From: Thermus caldilimi
GTDB taxonomy: Bacteria; Deinococcota; Deinococci; Deinococcales; Thermaceae
Reading direction: 5' to 3'
DNA length: 64,000 nt
Assembly (NCBI RefSeq): GCF_004684245.1
Contig: NZ_CP038452.1
Coordinates: forward strand, 2,342,796 to 2,406,795
Positions 11,477 to 62,877 of the stretch are shown here, piece after piece. The notes beneath the pieces are model-generated. The model worked only from the letters and a program-made list of their open reading frames with translations. It searched no databases and was not told where the DNA came from. Both the position numbers and the translations under genes were made by a program. Position 1 is the stretch's first letter. Every line of letters starts with the position of its first letter.

Positions 11477-12201
11477 ATGCGGCCCGAGTACCACAGGACC
11501 CGTCCTTTGGCTTTTCTCTACCGGGCCCCTTCCCCCCTCTTTGACCGGCTGGTGGCGGAGGTGGCCACCGCCAGGCTTCCCCTTTTCCTTTATCCCGTGG
11601 AGGCCCAGGATCCCTTTGCCCTCCTCCCCTGCCTGGCTTCTCTGGGCCTGGCCGGGGCGGTGCTGGCGGAGGCCCTGCCCCCTCCCAAGGACTTAGCCCC
11701 AAGCCTTTCCCTGGAGGCGGAGGCCCGGGAGGCAGGGCTTTTGGACCTGGTGGTGCCCCGGGTGGGGGGCTTTTGGGGCAGTACACGGAAGGGATAGCCC
11801 TGGAGCGGTTTCTCTCCGCCCACTTCCCCGGGGCCAGGGGGCTATGGCTTGGGCCTTTACGGCTCTCCCTGGTCCCTTTTCTCAGGTCCCTGGGCCAGGT
11901 TTCCGTGGTGGCCGGGAGCTTTGCCGAAGGGGATAGCTTTCTGGCCCGCCTACCAGAAAGGGCCCGGGGGCACGTGGCCTTAAGGCCGGAGGAGGCCAAG
12001 GGCCTCTCCTTGAAGGCGGATGTCCTCCTTTATGCGGGAGGGCGGCTTAGCCTGGATTTGCTCCAGCCCTTCCACGCCCTGGTGGCCCTGGTACCGGTGG
12101 AGAAGGGGGTCTGGGAAAGGGTGCAGGTGGTCTACCCCCCGGAGGACCTTCTGGGCTATAGGGTGAGGGCGGTCCTCGAGGGGCTCGGCTACCCCCTTTG
12201 A
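11477..12201 (+). pseudogene. Uncharacterised gene split by a frameshift
   Basis: Two frames read one protein. The first (ATG 11477, 4 bases after uvrD) ends DLVVPRVGGFWG before going out of frame at 11764-11778. The second continues QYTEGIALERFLSAHFPG and runs to 12201. Adding one G to either G-run (11764-11769 or 11775-11778) gives a continuous chain of about 241 residues. It looks like a two-domain alpha/beta protein. The middle (VVPRVGGFWGQYTEG) and the C-terminal strand-turn pattern faintly recall shikimate dehydrogenase-like folds, but the family signatures are missing, so no function is assigned. Confidence 0.55.
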
Positions 12202-12599
12202 CGGGCCTCTCGGGCCAAAAGCCCCATGCTGAGGGCGATGAGGGCGAAGGCGATCAGGGCCTGCAAGGGGATGGGGAACTGGGGGATGTACTCCACCGAG
12301 CAGGGCACCGGGGGCTTGCAGGCCAGGGTGAAGAGGTCGGGGAACTTTTGCTCCAAGAGATGCAGGGCGCTGAGGCTTCCCCCGATGAGGGAAAGGGCCA
12401 GGCTGTAAGGCCAGACCCGGAGGTCCTGCCGCCATAAGGCTAGCCCTAAGATCACCGCTTGGGGGTACATGAAGATGCGCTGGTACCAGCAGAGTTCGCA
12501 GGGCAGGAAAAGCCGCACCTCGGAGTAGTACAGGCTTCCCAAGGTGGCCACCAGGGCCACCAACCAGGCGAAGGCGAGGAGAAGGGGAGCGCGGTTCAT
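12189..12599 (-). CDS. dsbB: Disulfide bond formation protein DsbB/BdbC
   Basis: This 136-residue inner-membrane oxidoreductase reoxidises DsbA-like thioredoxins and passes electrons to quinone. Four hydrophobic helices are visible. The first redox pair CELCWYQR follows helix 1, and the second pair CKPPVPC lies in the loop after helix 3. ATG 12599 is chosen over an upstream GTG because TATGCT lies 6 bases before it, giving a leaderless start. Its last 13 bases overlap the 3' end of the opposing broken gene. No DsbA partner is encoded in the window. Confidence 0.9.
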   Translation of the reverse strand: MNRAPLLLAFAWLVALVATLGSLYYSEVRLFLPCELCWYQRIFMYPQAVILGLALWRQDLRVWPYSLALSLIGGSLSALHLLEQKFPDLFTLACKPPVPCSVEYIPQFPIPLQALIAFALIALSMGLLAREARQRG

Positions 12600-12605
12600 G
12601 GGGAG

Positions 12606-12611
12606 AGCATA
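12606..12611 (-). promoter_or_regulatory. -10 box of dsbB (leaderless)
   Basis: TATGCT on the minus strand is followed by CTCCCC and then the ATG at 12599. No ribosome-binding site is present in the 6-base gap. Confidence 0.5.
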
Positions 12612-12649
12612 CCGTCTGCCCACTTCGGTGCCTAGGAGGAAGTCCTTTC

Positions 12650-14338
12650 TCAGGTAGCGCCTTCCTGCAGGTAGGCGGGCTTGGGGAAGGAGATTTTCAC
12701 CGGCTGGCGGAAGGTGGCGTGGCTAAGAATCAATTCGCCTTTTTGCAAACGGGATATGTTGGCCTTGATGGCGGGGTCTAGGAAGCGATAGACGGGAGAG
12801 GAAAGCTCGGCGGAGCCGCTTCGCCCCAGGACCAAGGTGGAGGAGTTGCCCGCTACACGCTCGTGCACAGCGCTCATGAACTGCTCTGCTCCAAACAGGA
12901 CCACCCCCAAGGACCGGCCCCGTTCAGCGATGTCCAGGACCTGTTCCAGGATTGGCGATTCCTTCTCTCGTGCAGGGGCGTACTTGTTGAGCTCGTCCAC
13001 GAAGATGATGACCTTTTCCGGCAAATCCTCGCGCTCGCTACCCTCCTCCGCATAGAGGTTGTAGATGGTGCGCAGGATATCGCCAAAGACCAGGGTCTGC
13101 TCATCATCCGCCAAGCGGGCGATGTCCACCACAATGGTTTCCCCACCCCGGATCCTGGCGATTTCCTCGCTTAGGTTTTTGACGTGCTTTGGGCGCTGGG
13201 AAATGAAAATTCCTGTTTGACGGGTCTGGACGATGCGGCGGAGTAGCCGCCTAAACCGGGCTACAGATTGGGCGCGTACGTCTCCTACCGCCTGGGCTTG
13301 GCCGTCTTTAACTAGGGGTTCACCGTTGAGCAGGGTTTGCCAGTCATGTACTCCCTTCCACTTGCCTGAGGGTCCCCATTGCCCCGTTTTGGGGTCGGAA
13401 AGGCCTTGGGTAATCTCCCCGATGAGGGCGCCCACGGTGTCCCAGGGATCGGGGATGTTGGAAAGGAGAAGGTCCAGCTTGTTGTAGGTGTCCTGCAAGG
13501 AGTAAGCGTACGTGAACCAGTTGCGTTCGGGAAGGCGGAAGCTGTTGGGTCGGCCTGTGGTGTAGGTGTCTTTGCCGTAGGGAAGAAGGTAGCGTACGTT
13601 GCTGAAGGGTTTGGGAGTGAGGCCAAGCTTTTCCCAAAGCTCGTGCTGTTCGGGATCGAGGCCCCTTGGGGGAGGCTGGTCTATGGAAAGAAGGTCGCCG
13701 TGCTTGACGTTAAGGATGATGACCCCTATCCGGTCTCGGTTTTCCACCTTTTGCAGGATGGACTGGATGAGGAAGATGGCGTAGGAGGTTTTGGTGGCTA
13801 GGCCCGAGATGCCGCTTATGTTCACGTGCGCACCTTCAGGCCCCAGGATGTAGCGGCTATCCAGATAAACCACCGCCTGGGTGCCGTTAGACATCGCGAT
13901 GAGCCCAGCGGGAACCCGGTAGCGCTCCGGCACCTGGTCTATGCCCAGGGCAACATGGATCCCTTTTTCGTCGGCAAAGCGTACGGGTCGGTCGTTCATC
14001 ACCGGCATGTAGATGTCCTGATCGTTGGAGAGGACGGCCACGCGGGCCACGGTGGTGCCTTGGCGAAGGGTGTTGGGTTCCGTGGATACTTGCCCAAAGT
14101 CGTTGGAGATGAAGTTGGAAAGGTGGCTGGGGGCGTCCGTGGAATGCTCGAGGGTGGTCACAATCCCAAAGGTGTGGCTTTTTTCGCCCCCAGGGGCTAC
14201 TTGCTCGGCTTCCACGATGTCAAAGGGGTTGACGATCACCTCCGGTGCCAGCCAGAAGTGAAACTCGTCGGAGGAGTTGGGCTGGTTGGCAGTGGCCGAG
14301 GAAAGGCCTATTACCGGGCGCTCGGTGGACTCAGACAT
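12650..14338 (-). CDS. HerA-like FtsK-superfamily ATPase, defence-module subunit
   Basis: The 562-residue protein has an N-terminal beta-rich HerA barrel (about 25-160) and a RecA-type ATPase core. The P-loop is non-canonical: GISGLATKTS at 176-185 in place of GxxGxGKT, one residue longer, with the Lys-Thr pair kept. Walker B is VIIFVDELNKYAP (443-455), followed by LDIAERGRSLGVVLFGAEQ, the sensor-like segment of HerA proteins, and an arginine-bearing GRSGSAEL. HerA forms hexameric DNA translocases that feed DNA to NurA nucleases. The ATG follows the NurA-like stop by 3 bases and has GGAGGTGA before it. It is probably the last gene of the module. Confidence 0.8.
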   Translation of the reverse strand: MSESTERPVIGLSSATANQPNSSDEFHFWLAPEVIVNPFDIVEAEQVAPGGEKSHTFGIVTTLEHSTDAPSHLSNFISNDFGQVSTEPNTLRQGTTVARVAVLSNDQDIYMPVMNDRPVRFADEKGIHVALGIDQVPERYRVPAGLIAMSNGTQAVVYLDSRYILGPEGAHVNISGISGLATKTSYAIFLIQSILQKVENRDRIGVIILNVKHGDLLSIDQPPPRGLDPEQHELWEKLGLTPKPFSNVRYLLPYGKDTYTTGRPNSFRLPERNWFTYAYSLQDTYNKLDLLLSNIPDPWDTVGALIGEITQGLSDPKTGQWGPSGKWKGVHDWQTLLNGEPLVKDGQAQAVGDVRAQSVARFRRLLRRIVQTRQTGIFISQRPKHVKNLSEEIARIRGGETIVVDIARLADDEQTLVFGDILRTIYNLYAEEGSEREDLPEKVIIFVDELNKYAPAREKESPILEQVLDIAERGRSLGVVLFGAEQFMSAVHERVAGNSSTLVLGRSGSAELSSPVYRFLDPAIKANISRLQKGELILSHATFRQPVKISFPKPAYLQEGAT

Positions 14339-14341
14339 GGT

Positions 14342-15472
14342 TCACCTCCATTTCAAAAACTGTTGCACCACTTCTCGGGACACCAGGCTTTCCTTGATCG
14401 CCCTTTCCGCCAGGAAGATGGGGTAAAGGTGGGCGTGCCAGCGGCGGTCTTGTCCATGAGGGGTGACGCTTCTTTCCGCCACCAGGGCGCGGGAGAGGAG
14501 GTCGATGAGCTCCGAGGGTACCGCTTCTAGCGAGGGGTTGACCAGCTCGGCTTTGACCACGCCCATTAGGGGGTAGTCCACCTGGGTCTGCTCCCGAAGG
14601 CGGACGTACCAGAAAACCAGTTTTCCTTGCCGGGCGCCAAAGGCGGCGGTGCGGTGATAGGGCTTCAGATCGGCAAGGAGTTTGTAGATGGAGCGGCGCT
14701 CGGCCCGCGGCCCACGACCGAAGACAAATTGGGGATCTTTACGAAAGTTCTTGGCCACCCCTAAGACGGGTTTAATAATCTCGCTCTGCTCCAGATCGCT
14801 AAGGGTCGGTTGGAACTGAAGGGAACCGTCCACCACCAACCACTGGTCCAACCCCAGTTTAGGTAAAACCCGCCTGATGAGCTCCGCTTCCAGGTTGTGC
14901 ATCTCGAACCGGACTTTGCCCGCAGCCTTGTTGCGGAGGTCAAAATCGGAGAGTACGCCGGATACGATGTCCCGTTCTTCCAGATCCACAAGCCTTATAT
15001 CCGCCATCGTGGCGACGTTTTCCAATTTGCTCCACAGCTCAGAAGAAAGGCGCTTTCTACCCGCAAGGAGCAGGTTTCGTATTTCTAAAACTTCCCGCCG
15101 CACCGAGCCATTATCCTCGCGGCGGAGCACGCAGGCCCCGATTTGGGCAAAGTGAACGGGGGTTTCCCGCTCGTGCTCGAGGAGAGTGCCCAGGAAGTAG
15201 GAACGGAAGGAGCCATCCAAGAAGTAACGGAAAAGGTGCCTTTTGCTTCGGGTCAGGGGCGGGGTGGGCCGATAGAGGCTGGGCCTGGTTCCGTCCGTGC
15301 TTCTCTCAACGATTGTTTCGAAAACCCGTTCCTCTTCGTTGAGGGCCTGGTCCTCTCGCTCCTCAAAGTCGGGCCGCTCCAGGTCCTCCACCGCTCCGCC
15401 GACGGCGGGGAGCACCTCCACGCCCTGGGCGATGGTTTCGAGGATATGGCGCAGGTTTCGCAATGCCTGCAC
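14342..15472 (-). CDS. NurA-like nuclease, defence-module subunit
   Basis: The 376-residue protein starts at GTG 15472, 9 bases after AAGGAGG. It has the NurA layout: a strand ending in an acidic metal ligand followed by DGS (RYFLDGSFR, Asp 86), a long helical insertion, a second acid in WLVVDGSLQF (Asp 215), and a C-terminal HAHLYPIFLAERAIKES (346-362) like the final NurA helix. NurA is an exonuclease/endonuclease of the RNase H-like fold that works with HerA. Placement immediately before a HerA-type ATPase supports the call. Overall similarity to archaeal NurA is low, so the assignment rests on motifs and gene order. Confidence 0.65.
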   Translation of the reverse strand: MQALRNLRHILETIAQGVEVLPAVGGAVEDLERPDFEEREDQALNEEERVFETIVERSTDGTRPSLYRPTPPLTRSKRHLFRYFLDGSFRSYFLGTLLEHERETPVHFAQIGACVLRREDNGSVRREVLEIRNLLLAGRKRLSSELWSKLENVATMADIRLVDLEERDIVSGVLSDFDLRNKAAGKVRFEMHNLEAELIRRVLPKLGLDQWLVVDGSLQFQPTLSDLEQSEIIKPVLGVAKNFRKDPQFVFGRGPRAERRSIYKLLADLKPYHRTAAFGARQGKLVFWYVRLREQTQVDYPLMGVVKAELVNPSLEAVPSELIDLLSRALVAERSVTPHGQDRRWHAHLYPIFLAERAIKESLVSREVVQQFLKWR

Positions 15473-15512
15473 AGGTTATCGCCTCCTTCATCGGGCAACA
15501 GTAGGGGCGACC

Positions 15513-18500
15513 CTACGTGTCCCCGTTCCCGGCCAATTCGGCCAAACTGCGTTGGATCTCACGCAATTCCTCCTCGGTCAAGCCCCACAGCTTCGCCGCC
15601 TGCTGGTCGATCTCCGCCTCAATGTGACGCAACGCCGTTGTATCCCCCTGCCGCGCCGCCTCGTGTGCCGCTTCCGATAACTCCGCCAGTCGCCGATGCA
15701 CCGGGTTGGTCGGATCATAACGCGGGATGCGGATGTGCTCGAGGATATGTGGATCAGGGTGGAGGACTATGTAGGACTGGACAGTGAGGCGAGTGCAGGA
15801 GCTATTAAGAACGCTGCAGAGATAATGAGCGGCATCTTTGGATGCACACCCCACACTAACGAGGGTGTGAGCAGGAATGGTGGGTTTGCCTTCTTTGGGA
15901 GGTACAACAGTCGCATCGAGGGTATGCGCAACCTCACGCCACACCACCTTCCATGGGGCAAAGGTGTAGGGACCGACGGCGCCGTAAAAGTAAAAAGGTT
16001 CTCCTCGAGCAATAGCACTCTTAACCATCGCATCAGCTCGTTTGCGAAGAACCTCCTCAAACCTCTCAAAATATCCATAGGTTTTAGGATATAGATGTTG
16101 CATTTGGTGCATCGGGATAGTGCGCCCAGGCTTCTCTGGGTACTTGGGAACGATAATCCACGCTGAGGGTTCCGCCCGCCAACGTTGTACATCCCGCCCG
16201 CGGATGAGTGGGTAAAGCAGATCAGGCTCAATGGTTTCGGTCACCTCTTTTACCTTAACCTTGGCTCCCTCAGTAAGATTGCGTACCACCCAAAGCCTGT
16301 TAGGGCGCTTTAGTACAAGCCCAACCCAGTAGACGGCGTTAGCACCACCGGTATTAACCCCTTCGTGGGCTTTGTAGTCGGACCGACCCAAGATTTTGTG
16401 CATCGCTTGGAGTGCTTTCGGGCGGGCGGTGAGCCAGGGGGAGGTGAGGTCCTTGGGGTCTACGGGTTCAGCAACGAAGTTGAGCCGTTTTGTAGCCGCT
16501 ATTACTTCCTCCAAGGTGCTTTCGTAGGTGAAGCGAGCACCCCTCTTCTTGCGCCAAACAGTGTAGGGTACGGGATACTGAGTTGGACTGCCCTTTTCCA
16601 GTATCAACACGGCCGTGCGGTTGGAGGCGCCCTCAAAGGGGTTAAGGTCCACCATATCATCCACGTGCAGGATGCGGAGAGGAATTTCCTCGCCGTTTCC
16701 TGTGGGGATGCTTAGCCGCCGGAATCCGGCGCCGGCTCCCGCTGTTTTGAAAAGTGATTGCGTGATGACGAAGCCGAGCCTGCCGCTGTCTCTGAGCAGC
16801 CTGTCGGCTACAGTGTGGGTCATGAGGGCGGAGATGTCCACCTTGACTGCTCCTAAGCGTGGCCGCCCGCCTTTGAAGGTGCCGGCTATGCGGTAGCGGA
16901 GCCAGAGGTCTTTGATGCTCTCGCGGTATCCATCGGGCAGGTGCTCCCAGTTCACCCATGGTGGATTGCCGACGATATAGTCAAACTGCCCCACGGTGAG
17001 AGGGGCGAAGTTGTTCTTGAGGAGCCTTGCCCAAAGGCCGTTGAGGCCCTTGCGGTGAAGGTCTAAGAGCCTTTCGTAGAGGCCTTTGGCCAGCTCTTGG
17101 GCGTGGTCATCCCATTCTTTCGCTACCAGACTCCATTCTCGGCGGGTCCTTTCCAGGAAGGCCTTGGCATCCACCTCGGAGCGTATGCTGTCCTCCAGAA
17201 TCTCACAAAAGCGGTCGAAGCGTTTTGGGGTAGCGACCAGCGCCGCTGGCACTTGGAACTCCCCCACGGCGGTGGGGAAGATGTAGATACCCTGGTTGAA
17301 AAGGTCCTGCCCCTCGGCGGGCGTGCGGACAGAGTCAGCCAAGTAAATGGGTATGGTGATATCCCCTTGCCGGTACTGGAGGAGGTTGGCGATGGCCAGC
17401 AGGTAGTTAACCCGGGCTGTGAGGACGGCAAGGGGGTTAAGGTCAAAGCCCACCACATTCGTTAGGATGGCCTCCAAAAGTTCTTTTTCTGGAACCATGA
17501 GTAAGCGCCCCAGCTCCAACATTCTTCCAATGACCAGGACCAGGAAGGTGGCGGAGCCGCAAGCAGGGTCCAAAAAACGGGTCTGGAGAAGTTTTTGGCG
17601 CATTTCCTCGTTGTGAGGCGAAGGGGTCCCGGTGAAGAAGCGGTTATCGAGCTGTACCAGAAGGCGCCACGCCAGCCAGTCTGGTGTGTAGTACTCCCCA
17701 AGGTTGTGGCGTATTTCCCGGGGTAAGAGGTAGTGATAGAGCTTTTTGAAAAGGTCCCGGGTTTCTTCGGGGAAGAGGGATAGGGTGGTGGGGTCGTACT
17801 CGTCCAGGCGTTCGATGAGGGTGCGAAGGCCCTGCTCCACCTCTTCGTTCCAGGCGTGGAGGTACCAGGCGAAGAAGTCGCCCTCCAAAAGGTTGAGGAT
17901 CCCATACTGGCGGAAGATGCCTCCGGATTCCATCTCCCCCAGCCTTTTCCGCAGGGTGTCCCCGTCTGCCGAGGCCAGGACGGAAAACTGGGGTGCCCCT
18001 AGCTTAACCCCCATGTGGCGGGAAAGGGCCAGCCAAGCGAGAAGCTTGGCTAGGAGAGCGAAGTACGTGTGGAGGACAAAGAAGAAGCGCTCGGCTTCTT
18101 CTGGGGTTTGGATGTCCAGGCCAGCCTTGCGCACCCATTTCTTAAGCGGCTCCAACTTGCGCCCACCAAAGGCTTCGGAATAATCTATGGATTCGCTGAA
18201 AAAGGTGCGCCACTGTGCAAAGAGTTTACGGGCCAGACCTTCCTCCGCCAATGCTTTTCCCAAGGCTTGATAGAGGCTTCGAAGGATGGTCTGGGTGCGA
18301 AGCTGCTCTATGTTAAAGTCCCGGTTGAGGTTTTCCGGTGTTAGGGCAATCCCTGAAGCCAAGCCTGCAAGCCAGGTGAGAAATCGCTTGAGCGAGAGGG
18401 GGTTTGCCTCCAGGGGAGGTTCTTCCACCCACCTTCCCCCCAAGTGCCGGACAAAGATGAGATAGCGCCCGTCAAAGGCCACACCCGCCAGGCGCTCCTT

Positions 18501-18836
18501 GGCGTGGCGATCCTTTTGGGCAATACCGGCAAGGTAATCCTTCACCTGTTGCACCGCATGCCGGGTGGCGGCGTCTGGCTTGGGCTTGAGGACGCCGGGG
18601 CGCTCGTACTCGATGACGAGGCGGTTAAAGATGGCATCGGCCCGTCCTTGTGCTAAGGTGTACTCCGCTCGGGCTAGGGGCTGGAGGTCCATTTCTTCCA
18701 AGAACTCTGCCAATACAGGCTCCACCGCCCGGCGGAACTCCGCCTCGTTGGGGTTTTGGCTTAGGCTCTGTTTTATAACTTGGTCGAGCTTGGCCGCGTA
18801 GGTGGCAAGGATGGCTTCCCTATCATGAGGGCTCAT
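15513..18836 (-). CDS. Type IIG-like restriction endonuclease-adenine methyltransferase fusion
   Basis: This 1107-residue protein starts with a nuclease-like domain: after a helical lead come GRADAIF (Asp 67) and VIEYERPG (Glu 76, Glu 78), the shape of a PD-(D/E)XK core although the usual lysine is not obvious. A helical connector (about 160-375) leads to an N6-adenine methyltransferase: LGEYYTPDWLAWRLL (motif X, 379-393), DPACGSATFLV (motif I, 423-433), FDLNPLAV (motif II) and NPPW (motif IV, 624-627). The C-terminal 350 residues resemble a target-recognition domain (LYPLIRGRDVQRW, HYLCSVLNSS). The fused layout is that of type IIG enzymes and large PglX-like methylases. Codon use is clearly richer in A/T than neighbouring genes, suggesting transfer. 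It is followed 40 bases later by the NurA-like and HerA-like genes. Confidence 0.8.
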   Translation of the reverse strand: MSPHDREAILATYAAKLDQVIKQSLSQNPNEAEFRRAVEPVLAEFLEEMDLQPLARAEYTLAQGRADAIFNRLVIEYERPGVLKPKPDAATRHAVQQVKDYLAGIAQKDRHAKERLAGVAFDGRYLIFVRHLGGRWVEEPPLEANPLSLKRFLTWLAGLASGIALTPENLNRDFNIEQLRTQTILRSLYQALGKALAEEGLARKLFAQWRTFFSESIDYSEAFGGRKLEPLKKWVRKAGLDIQTPEEAERFFFVLHTYFALLAKLLAWLALSRHMGVKLGAPQFSVLASADGDTLRKRLGEMESGGIFRQYGILNLLEGDFFAWYLHAWNEEVEQGLRTLIERLDEYDPTTLSLFPEETRDLFKKLYHYLLPREIRHNLGEYYTPDWLAWRLLVQLDNRFFTGTPSPHNEEMRQKLLQTRFLDPACGSATFLVLVIGRMLELGRLLMVPEKELLEAILTNVVGFDLNPLAVLTARVNYLLAIANLLQYRQGDITIPIYLADSVRTPAEGQDLFNQGIYIFPTAVGEFQVPAALVATPKRFDRFCEILEDSIRSEVDAKAFLERTRREWSLVAKEWDDHAQELAKGLYERLLDLHRKGLNGLWARLLKNNFAPLTVGQFDYIVGNPPWVNWEHLPDGYRESIKDLWLRYRIAGTFKGGRPRLGAVKVDISALMTHTVADRLLRDSGRLGFVITQSLFKTAGAGAGFRRLSIPTGNGEEIPLRILHVDDMVDLNPFEGASNRTAVLILEKGSPTQYPVPYTVWRKKRGARFTYESTLEEVIAATKRLNFVAEPVDPKDLTSPWLTARPKALQAMHKILGRSDYKAHEGVNTGGANAVYWVGLVLKRPNRLWVVRNLTEGAKVKVKEVTETIEPDLLYPLIRGRDVQRWRAEPSAWIIVPKYPEKPGRTIPMHQMQHLYPKTYGYFERFEEVLRKRADAMVKSAIARGEPFYFYGAVGPYTFAPWKVVWREVAHTLDATVVPPKEGKPTIPAHTLVSVGCASKDAAHYLCSVLNSSCTRLTVQSYIVLHPDPHILEHIRIPRYDPTNPVHRRLAELSEAAHEAARQGDTTALRHIEAEIDQQAAKLWGLTEEELREIQRSLAELAGNGDT

Positions 18837-18844
18837 TTGCCATC

Positions 18845-18850
18845 ATTATA
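18845..18850 (-). promoter_or_regulatory. -10 box of the nuclease-methyltransferase/nurA/herA module
   Basis: A perfect TATAAT lies 8 bases before the ATG at 18836 on the minus strand, in a locally A/T-rich stretch. The leader would be 0-2 bases. No clear -35 box was seen. It is the only plausible promoter for the three-gene module. Confidence 0.55.
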
Positions 18851-18885
18851 GTTTGTGGCCGGGAATCCCTAGATGGGGCTTTGGC

Positions 18886-19800
18886 CTAGCCCTCTAGCAA
18901 CGCCTCCACAAAGGCCTCGGCGTCAAAGGGCTGGAGGTCGTCTGGGCCTTCCCCCACCCCGATGAAGCGGATGGGCACCTTAAGGGTGCGCACGATGGGA
19001 ATGAGGACTCCGCCCTTGGCGGTGCCGTCCAGCTTGGTGACGATGACCCCGGTGAGCCCCACCGCCTCGTGGAAGCGCTTGGCCTGCTCCAGGCCGTTTT
19101 GCCCGGTGACGGCGTCCAGCACCAGCCAGACCTCCTTGGGCTCCTCGGGATCGGCCTTGGCGATGGCCCGCTTCACCTTCTTCAGCTCCTCCATCAGGTT
19201 GTGCTTGGTGTGGAGGCGGCCTGCGGTGTCCACCAGGAGGAGGTCGTAGCCCCTGGCTTTCCGGGCGCTTGCCGCATCAAAGGCCAAAGCGGCGGGGTCG
19301 GCCCCTTCTGGCCCTTGGATCACGGGGATGTCCAAGCGTTTCCCCCACTCGGAAAGCTGGGCTCCCCCGGCCGCGCGGAAGGTGTCCCCGGCGCAGAACA
19401 TCACCTTCTTGCCCAGGTTCCGGTAGTAGCGTCCCAGCTTGGCGATGGTGGTGGTCTTGCCCACCCCGTTTACCCCCACCACCAGAACCACGTGGCCCTG
19501 GGGTTCCACGGGCTTAGGGGTTTGCGGGCGGAAGCCGAGTTTCCTCAAGGTGGCCCGGCGCTCGTCCGGCTCCAGCATCTGGACGAGCTTCTCCTTTACG
19601 GCCTCCTTCAGGTCTTTCCGTCCCGAAGCCCGTACCTCGGCCAGGAGCTCCTCGGTGGCCTCGAGGCCCACGTCGGCGGCGAGGAGGGCCATTTCCAGCT
19701 CCTCCAGGACCTCCTCGGGGCTTCCGCCCCAGGGGATGGCCTTGAGGAGGGTTTCTCGCGTCTTGGCGAGGCCGGCTTTCAGTCGGTCAAAGAAGCCCAT
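18886..19800 (-). CDS. ftsY: Signal recognition particle receptor FtsY
   Basis: From ATG 19800 (MGFFDRLKAGL) the protein has 304 residues, the length I recall for T. aquaticus FtsY. An N-terminal helical N domain is followed by the SRP-family GTPase: G1 GVNGVGKTTTIAKL, the DTFRAAG insertion-box motif, G3 DTAGR, G4 TKLDG and the GVGEGPDDLQPF end. It docks SRP-ribosome complexes at the membrane. The acidic A domain of E. coli FtsY is missing, as usual in Thermus. An in-frame start 9 codons upstream is possible, but GGGGG sits just before ATG 19800. Confidence 0.95.
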   Translation of the reverse strand: MGFFDRLKAGLAKTRETLLKAIPWGGSPEEVLEELEMALLAADVGLEATEELLAEVRASGRKDLKEAVKEKLVQMLEPDERRATLRKLGFRPQTPKPVEPQGHVVLVVGVNGVGKTTTIAKLGRYYRNLGKKVMFCAGDTFRAAGGAQLSEWGKRLDIPVIQGPEGADPAALAFDAASARKARGYDLLLVDTAGRLHTKHNLMEELKKVKRAIAKADPEEPKEVWLVLDAVTGQNGLEQAKRFHEAVGLTGVIVTKLDGTAKGGVLIPIVRTLKVPIRFIGVGEGPDDLQPFDAEAFVEALLEG

Positions 19801-19842
19801 CGTCCCCCTATTTTGCAGCCCCCGCACCCCGCCTTGGGGCCT

Positions 19843-62801: not shown

Positions 62802-62877
62802 GGGGCCGTGGCGCAGCTGGGAGCGCGCCTGAATCGCACTCAGGAGGTCACGGGTTCGAGTCCCGTCGGCTCCACCA
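62802..62877 (+). tRNA. tRNA-Ala (anticodon CGC)
   Basis: The 76-base sequence folds into a standard cloverleaf with encoded CCA. The acceptor stem GGGGCCG/CGGCTCC contains the G3:U70 wobble pair that identifies alanine tRNA. The anticodon stem-loop is CCTGA-ATCGCAC-TCAGG, giving CGC for codon GCG. The T arm is CACGGGTTCGAGTCCCGT. Confidence 0.95.

What the first reader, a model, noticed from the sequence alone, without database searches (positions are those of the whole stretch)
12650..18836. Candidate new defence system: type IIG-like nuclease-methyltransferase + NurA-like nuclease + HerA-like ATPase
Three genes on one strand, with gaps of 3 and 40 bases, one promoter-like TATAAT and no other genes inside. 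The first encodes an N-terminal PD-(D/E)XK-like region fused to an N6-adenine methyltransferase and target domain; the second a NurA-type nuclease; the third a HerA-type translocase. HerA-NurA pairs normally process DNA ends for repair, and HerA proteins are known partners of nucleases or Sir2 in phage defence. Coupling HerA-NurA to a self-contained restriction-modification enzyme suggests that methylation marks self, while HerA pumps unmodified DNA into NurA after sensing or cutting. I do not know of a named system with exactly this trio, but cannot rule it out.
Basis: partly seen in the sequence, partly recalled or inferred. Interest (0 to 1): 0.88.

Follow-up and report, generated by a model that had tools for sequence, protein, structure and literature searches.

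The report
DNA-cutting, -marking and -pumping gene trio
Three neighbouring genes in a heat-loving Thermus bacterium encode a DNA cutter-and-marker, a nuclease and a DNA pump; the same set is already known to let a sister Thermus strain export DNA to its neighbours, so it is a stripped-down version of a known machine rather than a new defence system, although a role against phages has not been tested.

Summary
The three genes are real, intact and co-linear. They encode a TspDTI-subfamily type IIG restriction-methylation enzyme (1107 aa), a NurA-fold nuclease (376 aa) and a HerA-type ATPase (562 aa), with gaps of 40 and 3 bases and a conserved -10 element 8 nt upstream. The set is not unnamed. 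It is the tdtA cluster described in T. thermophilus HB27 (ICETh1: Tth111II/TthHB27I, NurA-like, TdtA), where each gene is needed for efficient DNA donation by transjugation (PMC5365140). That paper already lists the T. scotoductus DSM 8553 cluster, to which the window's proteins are 79/86/96% identical at the same ftsY-dsbB locus. New here: a three-gene form without ICETh1's fourth methylase, integrase or repeats; presence in 4 of 27 Thermus species, always between ftsY and dsbB; closely similar trios in Chloroflexota, Bipolaricaulota, Pseudomonadota and other MAGs; replacement of the target-recognition domain in otherwise near-identical operons; related operons with NurA, HerA and a methylase but no type IIG enzyme. 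The last two, and the fold match to TdpB of the TdpAB machine, keep the restriction/defence reading open. No defence phenotype has been shown.

The parts
15513..18836 (-). Gene 1: type IIG (IIC/IIS) restriction-methylation enzyme of the TspDTI subfamily, 1107 aa: PD-(D/E)XK nuclease domain, helical domain, gamma-class N6-adenine methyltransferase, C-terminal target-recognition domain
   Evidence: PADLOC REase_II PDLC03580 2041 bits over residues 1-1104, Pfam Eco57I 1.1e-8; motifs D67-X8-E76-Y-E78, DPACGS, NPPW; 78% identical to the Thermus protein that matches every published TspDTI residue
15732..16154 (-). Target-recognition domain of gene 1 (residues about 895-1035), the hypervariable part
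   Evidence: 36-41% identity to the other Thermus trios here against 79-89% in the other domains; 53-54% to the TRDs of L061 and L063 from other phyla; L052 versus L054 falls to 16-35% in its core inside an otherwise near-identical operon
14342..15472 (-). Gene 2: NurA-type nuclease, 376 aa (GTG start)
   Evidence: AlphaFold2 model pLDDT 84.8; 7f6d drNurA Z 19.4, 2ygk SsoNurA Z 15.0; Pfam NurA hits 6 of 19 family members; PDB profile match to drNurA 4e-5; D86 and D215 conserved
12650..14338 (-). Gene 3: HerA-type (TdtA-like) translocase ATPase, 562 aa; P-loop GISGLATKTS with K183/T184, Walker B D448/E449
   Evidence: PDB 7f6d D. radiodurans HerA E 1.5e-46, P-loop and Walker B aligned with drHerA K175/T176 and D487/E488; 36% identical to the genome's own housekeeping HepA-like HerA
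18845..18850 (-). -10 element TATAAT, 8 nt upstream of the gene 1 ATG (probably leaderless transcript)
   Evidence: Spacing and hexamer (TATAAT/TAGAAT) conserved in three other Thermus loci; no -35 match
18886..19827 (-). Upstream boundary: ftsY
   Evidence: The same neighbour in all four Thermus trios; in 22 other Thermus genomes ftsY lies next to dsbB without the trio
12189..12623 (-). Downstream boundary: dsbB
   Evidence: Pfam DsbB 3.7e-10; synteny

Best explanation
The trio is a chromosomal, integrase-less tdtA-type cluster. The type IIG enzyme methylates its own asymmetric site on resident DNA and nicks or cuts at a distance where methylation is missing or incomplete. The NurA dimer docked on the HerA/TdtA hexamer takes the resulting ends and drives, and partly resects, duplex DNA through the ring. 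In the one member that has been tested (T. thermophilus HB27) this sends DNA out of the cell for transjugation, and DNA donation is the most likely use here too. Restriction of unmodified incoming DNA is a probable second use of the same machine. Shown: homology, gene order, intact catalytic motifs, NurA fold, conserved linkage, TRD replacement. Inferred: that the end made by gene 1 is the substrate of NurA-HerA, that HerA exports DNA in this strain, and any restriction activity.
For: In HB27, Tth111II-NurA-TdtA is one operon; a tdtA mutant gives no detectable transjugants, the nurA mutant loses 4-5 logs and the Tth111II mutant about 3 logs of donation (PMC5365140); the cut-then-pump model is in PMC7767461. 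The same paper names a tdtA-like cluster in T. scotoductus DSM 8553. That cluster is L057/G017, 79/86/96% identical to the window trio and at the same ftsY-dsbB site, and its REase is the only match above threshold in that genome. The likely Chloracidobacterium thermophilum B locus, also named in the paper, has the same order plus the PF01555 methylase. The HerA tree keeps the window clade and the four-gene clade apart from HepA. D. radiodurans NurA-HerA, the closest solved relatives, translocate and resect dsDNA (PMC9960219).
Against: HB27 protein sequences were not in the searchable collections, so identity to TdtA itself is inferred through named intermediates. The window trio lacks ICETh1's fourth methylase, integrase and repeats, so its mobility and perhaps its role differ. 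Transjugation has not been shown in this strain or in any non-Thermus host of the trio, and no outer-envelope export channel is encoded with it. TRD exchange and methylase-only variants fit self/non-self discrimination better than pure DNA export.
Confidence: 0.58

Rival explanations
1. Dedicated defence: the methylase marks self; HerA-NurA (with or without the IIG nuclease) degrades unmodified phage or plasmid DNA, a methylation counterpart of the phosphorothioate-gated TdpABC system of Thermus. DNA donation in HB27 is then a side effect of the same cutting and pumping.
For: TRD replaced inside otherwise near-identical operons, typical of restriction systems under selection for new specificities; the window TRD is closer to other phyla than to its own genus. 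Related NurA-HerA operons with a PF01555 methylase and no type IIG enzyme within the fetched 13 kb (L094, L102). The NurA model matches a chain of the TdpAB-DNA complex 8wfd, Z 13.8. Cross-phylum spread with no tyrosine integrase nearby in 14 genomes. A truncated methyltransferase N-terminus sits next to the trio in three loci.
Against: No phage or plasmid restriction data for any member as a set; the Thermus site is housekeeping context rather than a defence island; PADLOC has no such multi-gene system; the only genetics points to DNA donation.
Confidence: 0.3
2. Ordinary stand-alone type IIG restriction-modification system whose NurA-HerA neighbours are DNA-end repair genes that hitch-hike or mend self-cuts.
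For: TspDTI-subfamily enzymes work alone in vitro; relatives of gene 1 occur without NurA nearby in some Chloroflexota-phylum genomes (G113, G226) and on plasmids; HerA-NurA pairs do end resection in repair.
Against: The genome already has a housekeeping HerA; NurA of this family was never seen without a methylase gene nearby where context was readable; HB27 nurA and tdtA mutants lose donation, and tdtA mutants are not stress-sensitive.
Confidence: 0.09
3. Decaying or inactive remnant of an ICE.
For: No integrase, no repeats; HerA of Thermus G002 is broken by a 4-base insertion.
Against: All three window genes are full length with catalytic motifs intact and closely conserved in two other Thermus species.
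Confidence: 0.03

Closest known systems
tdtA operon of ICETh1, T. thermophilus HB27 (TTC1877-1880; PMC5365140, PMC7767461)
   Same: Same order type IIG enzyme - NurA-like - HerA-like; near-identical lengths (1106/377/568 against 1107/376/562 aa); same enzyme subfamily (TspDTI: D-EXE, DPACGS, NPPW)
   Different: No fourth PF01555 methylase, no integrase, no tRNA target or 47-bp repeats; sits between ftsY and dsbB; probably a sister clade (HB27's nearest named relative, Chloracidobacterium, falls in the four-gene clade of the HerA tree)
tdtA-like cluster of T. scotoductus DSM 8553 (named in PMC5365140; here L057/G017)
   Same: Same locus, same three genes, 79/86/96% identity
   Different: Different TRD (41% identical), so probably a different recognition sequence
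TspDTI (ATGAA 11/9; PMC3384240)
   Same: All published catalytic and specificity residues of TspDTI are found at the published positions in the 1112-aa gene 1 of Thermus genome G004; the window enzyme is 84-89% identical to it in the non-TRD domains
   Different: TRD only 36% identical; recognition sequence of the window enzyme unknown
Housekeeping NurA-HerA/HepA (D. radiodurans, archaea, TTC0147)
   Same: NurA fold (Z 19.4), HerA P-loop and Walker B
   Different: Set in an operon with a restriction-methylation enzyme; HerA only 36% identical to the genome's own HepA
TdpABC phosphorothioate defence of Thermus antranikianii (system from memory; TdpAB structure 8wfd)
   Same: NurA-fold nuclease plus HerA-type translocase next to a DNA-modifying gene
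   Different: Methylation instead of phosphorothioate; no detectable sequence match of TdpA or TdpB in PDB sequence searches

Membership tests
tdtA cluster / DNA secretion system of Thermus | Operon order type IIG RM enzyme - NurA - HerA/TdtA | tested here: met
tdtA cluster / DNA secretion system of Thermus | Gene 1 of the Tth111II/TspDTI subfamily (atypical D-EXE, DPACGS, NPPW) | tested here: met
   D67/E76/E78, DPACGSA, NPPW; published motifs
tdtA cluster / DNA secretion system of Thermus | HerA closer to TdtA than to HepA | tested here: inconclusive
   HB27 TdtA sequence not held; by proxy 56% identity to the likely C. thermophilum protein against 36% to own HepA, and separate in the tree
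tdtA cluster / DNA secretion system of Thermus | Fourth gene, PF01555 methylase (TTC1880), in the operon | tested here: not met
   dsbB follows HerA directly; present in L093, L094, L095, L101, L102. Its loss has only minor effects on transfer in HB27
tdtA cluster / DNA secretion system of Thermus | Required for DNA donation in transjugation | not testable with these tools
   shown only in HB27
ICETh1 (integrative and conjugative element) | Tyrosine integrase next to the cluster | tested here: not met
   nearest PF00589 match about 86 kb away
ICETh1 (integrative and conjugative element) | Direct repeats / insertion at the 3' end of a tRNA | tested here: not met
   no repeat of 18 bases or more in 12400-19000; the only tRNA in the window is at 62802
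NurA nuclease family | RNase H-like NurA fold with acidic catalytic residues | tested here: met
HerA-FtsK translocases, HerA branch | Walker A and B as in a solved HerA | tested here: met
Type IIG (IIC) restriction-modification enzyme | One chain with nuclease motif, SAM motif and NPPW, plus TRD | tested here: met
Type IIG (IIC) restriction-modification enzyme | Cleavage outside the site and methylation activity | not testable with these tools
   shown for TspDTI, not for this protein
Named anti-phage system (PADLOC 2023) | All three proteins match models of one system | tested here: not met
   gene 1 type II/IIG only, HerA weak mad8/HerA hits, NurA none
TdpABC | Phosphorothioate-modifying TdpC in the operon | tested here: not met
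   only three genes; the modifier is an N6-adenine methyltransferase

The most novel reading that the evidence does not exclude
The trio is the three-gene form of a widespread family of methylation-gated HerA-NurA systems shared among thermophilic bacteria: a methylase (type IIG, or PF01555 alone) marks self, HerA-NurA is itself the effector on unmarked DNA, specificity changes by TRD swapping across phyla, and transjugation in T. thermophilus is an exaptation of this restriction machine.
Probability: 0.33. Interest if true: 0.72.

Novelty: new variant of a known kind. Interest (0 to 1): 0.45.

Why it matters
It turns an isolated oddity of one T. thermophilus mobile element into a module conserved across several thermophile phyla. 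It also makes a question directly testable: whether a restriction enzyme plus HerA-NurA is a DNA exporter, a defence system, or both. A recombination that changes mainly the target-recognition end of gene 1 between otherwise near-identical operons (G004 with TspDTI residues, and T. scotoductus DSM 8553) is a natural experiment for that.

Tried and rejected
HB27 TTC1877-1879 sequences: not reached in the plasmid or representative-genome searches, so compared through named intermediates only. First AlphaFold2 run of NurA with 10 close sequences: pLDDT 43, discarded; a 19-sequence alignment gave 84.8. Viral contigs: no relative of NurA; plasmids none; phage records only weak NurA homologues, 26-29% identical. 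A conserved fourth gene in the window clade: none found by flank clustering. The 85-aa ORF upstream of gene 1 in L061/L062/L066 was considered as a controller gene and rejected: it matches the N-terminus of a site-specific DNA methyltransferase. Flanking repeats or integrase as a mobility mechanism: none. Iyer 2004 paper not held; TdpABC paper not held, so that system is described from memory except for PDB entry 8wfd.

Full report
What is in the window. The window lies in a complete 2.45 Mb Thermus genome. Three genes run on the minus strand: 15513-18836 (1107 aa), 14342-15472 (376 aa) and 12650-14338 (562 aa), with gaps of 40 and 3 bases, between ftsY and dsbB. GC content is 56-60% inside and 64-67% outside. 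A TATAAT lies 8 nt before the first ATG; the hexamer and its spacing are kept in three other Thermus loci although the surrounding spacer differs.

Gene 1. It matches PADLOC's REase_II model over its whole length with 2041 bits and carries D67-X8-E76-Y-E78, DPACGSA and NPPW. These are the features published for the TspDTI subfamily of bifunctional Thermus enzymes (TspDTI, Tth111II/TthHB27I, TsoI; PMC3384240). Gene 1 of a second Thermus genome (G004, L052) is 1112 aa and has every residue published for TspDTI at the published position, including the three proposed specificity loops ending at 968, 987 and 1028. It is therefore TspDTI or nearly so.

Gene 2. Sequence alone is weak (drNurA, E 0.017). 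A family profile gives drNurA at 4e-5, and Pfam NurA is hit by 6 of 19 family members. An AlphaFold2 model from 19 relatives (pLDDT 84.8) matches D. radiodurans NurA at Z 19.4, S. solfataricus NurA at 15.0 and a chain of the TdpAB-DNA complex (by size the nuclease, TdpB) at 13.8.

Gene 3. It is closest among solved structures to D. radiodurans HerA (1.5e-46). Its P-loop GISGLATKTS and Walker B DE align with drHerA K175/T176 and D487/E488 (residue roles in PMC9960219). The genome has a separate housekeeping HerA that is 36% identical, of the kind called HepA in Thermus (PMC5448004).

Known precedent. In T. thermophilus HB27 the operon TTC1877-1880 encodes Tth111II/TthHB27I (1106 aa), a NurA-like protein (377 aa), TdtA (HerA-like, 568 aa) and a PF01555 methylase inside the mobile element ICETh1. 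TdtA is absolutely required for DNA donation; loss of NurA costs 4-5 logs and loss of Tth111II about 3 logs (PMC5365140). The proposed model is that the IIG enzyme cuts and TdtA, helped by NurA, pumps DNA out (PMC7767461). The same paper mentions tdtA-like clusters in T. scotoductus DSM 8553 and Chloracidobacterium thermophilum. The first is L057/G017 here, at the same ftsY-dsbB site and 79/86/96% identical to the window proteins. The second is probably G554: two contigs of 2,683,362 and 1,012,010 bases, the sizes I remember for strain B, with the same order plus the PF01555 methylase.

Distribution. Among 27 Thermus genomes four carry the trio, all between ftsY and dsbB. In the 22 other genomes where both genes were found together, the spacer is 0-260 bp, or 722 bp with an insert, and often holds a small DUF5522 gene that is absent from the site when the trio is there. 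All ten NurA relatives from the named-genome scan lie next to gene 1, HerA or both, in Chloroflexota, Bipolaricaulota, Pseudomonadota, Thermoanaerobaculum and HR10 MAGs, with HerA up to 89% identical. NurA-profile searches found the family in 4 of 111 Deinococcota genomes (all Thermus), 10 of 400 in the phylum of G027 and 6 of 396 in the phylum of G030. Counting distinct loci with NurA at least 36% identical, 20 of 23 show gene 1 nearby (some cut by contig ends; two with an inserted stretch of 1-3 kb). L094 and L102 have NurA-HerA-PF01555 with no gene 1 in the 13 kb fetched, and L081 was too short to tell. The link is one-sided: relatives of gene 1 also occur without NurA nearby (G113 at 60%, G226 at 43%). 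No tyrosine integrase was found within 40 kb on the same contig of any trio in 14 genomes (some contigs are short). The HerA tree separates a trio-only clade (98/99) from a four-gene clade (91/84).

Target-recognition domain exchange. L052 and L054 have HerA 99.8% identical and the first 490 or so residues of gene 1 96-100% identical, yet identity then falls, to 16-36% in the core of the recognition domain. The window's recognition domain is 36-41% identical to the other Thermus trios here but 53-54% to those of a Thermoflexus and a Pseudomonadota MAG, while its other domains are 79-89% identical to the Thermus trios. Specificity is thus exchanged independently of the rest.

Mechanism. Shown: homology, order, motifs, fold, linkage and TRD exchange. 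Inferred: gene 1 methylates resident sites and nicks or cuts incompletely methylated ones; NurA-HerA takes over the ends and drives DNA through the ring. In HB27 this yields DNA donation, the only measured phenotype, and I take that as most likely here (0.58). The alternative, that methylation protects self and HerA-NurA destroys unmarked DNA, is supported by TRD exchange, by methylase-only variants and by the TdpAB precedent (TdpABC as a defence system is from memory; its paper was not held). I give it 0.30. The two are not exclusive.

Membership. It is filed as a tdtA-type cluster, not as ICETh1: the integrase and repeats were tested and not met, and the fourth methylase is absent. Direct identity to HB27 TdtA could not be computed. 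Overall: a new variant of a known kind, interesting mainly for its cross-phylum spread and TRD swapping.

Noticed in passing
L053:6409-8098 (Thermus G002): HerA of this trio is broken by a 4-base insertion while gene 1 and NurA stay open; a natural HerA mutant or a draft-assembly error.
   Followed up: partly
ftsY-dsbB spacer in trio-less Thermus genomes (e.g. L025, L035, L040, L042, L043): A small DUF5522 gene (YCCGSGCRHCPW) occupies the site that the trio occupies in four species.
   Followed up: partly
L061:6373-6630, L062:6405-6662, L066:6436-6741: A truncated N-terminus of a site-specific DNA methyltransferase lies immediately upstream of gene 1 in three loci of different origin, as if the trio had landed in or replaced a restriction-modification locus.
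   Followed up: partly
L094:2100-6214 and L102:6120-10285: NurA-HerA-PF01555 methylase operons with no type IIG enzyme in the fetched 13 kb: a possible methylase-only form of the system.
   Followed up: partly
L097:5396-11715: A distant NurA-HerA pair followed by a HATPase_c protein and a 601-aa protein, neither matched by PADLOC: possibly another NurA-HerA system.
   Followed up: no
L062:12919-14601: A GmrSD-type (type IV restriction) protein lies directly downstream of the trio in bacterium HR10.
   Followed up: no
L092:6634-12706 and L065/L082: Variant gene order NurA-HerA-type IIG enzyme (the enzyme last instead of first).
   Followed up: no
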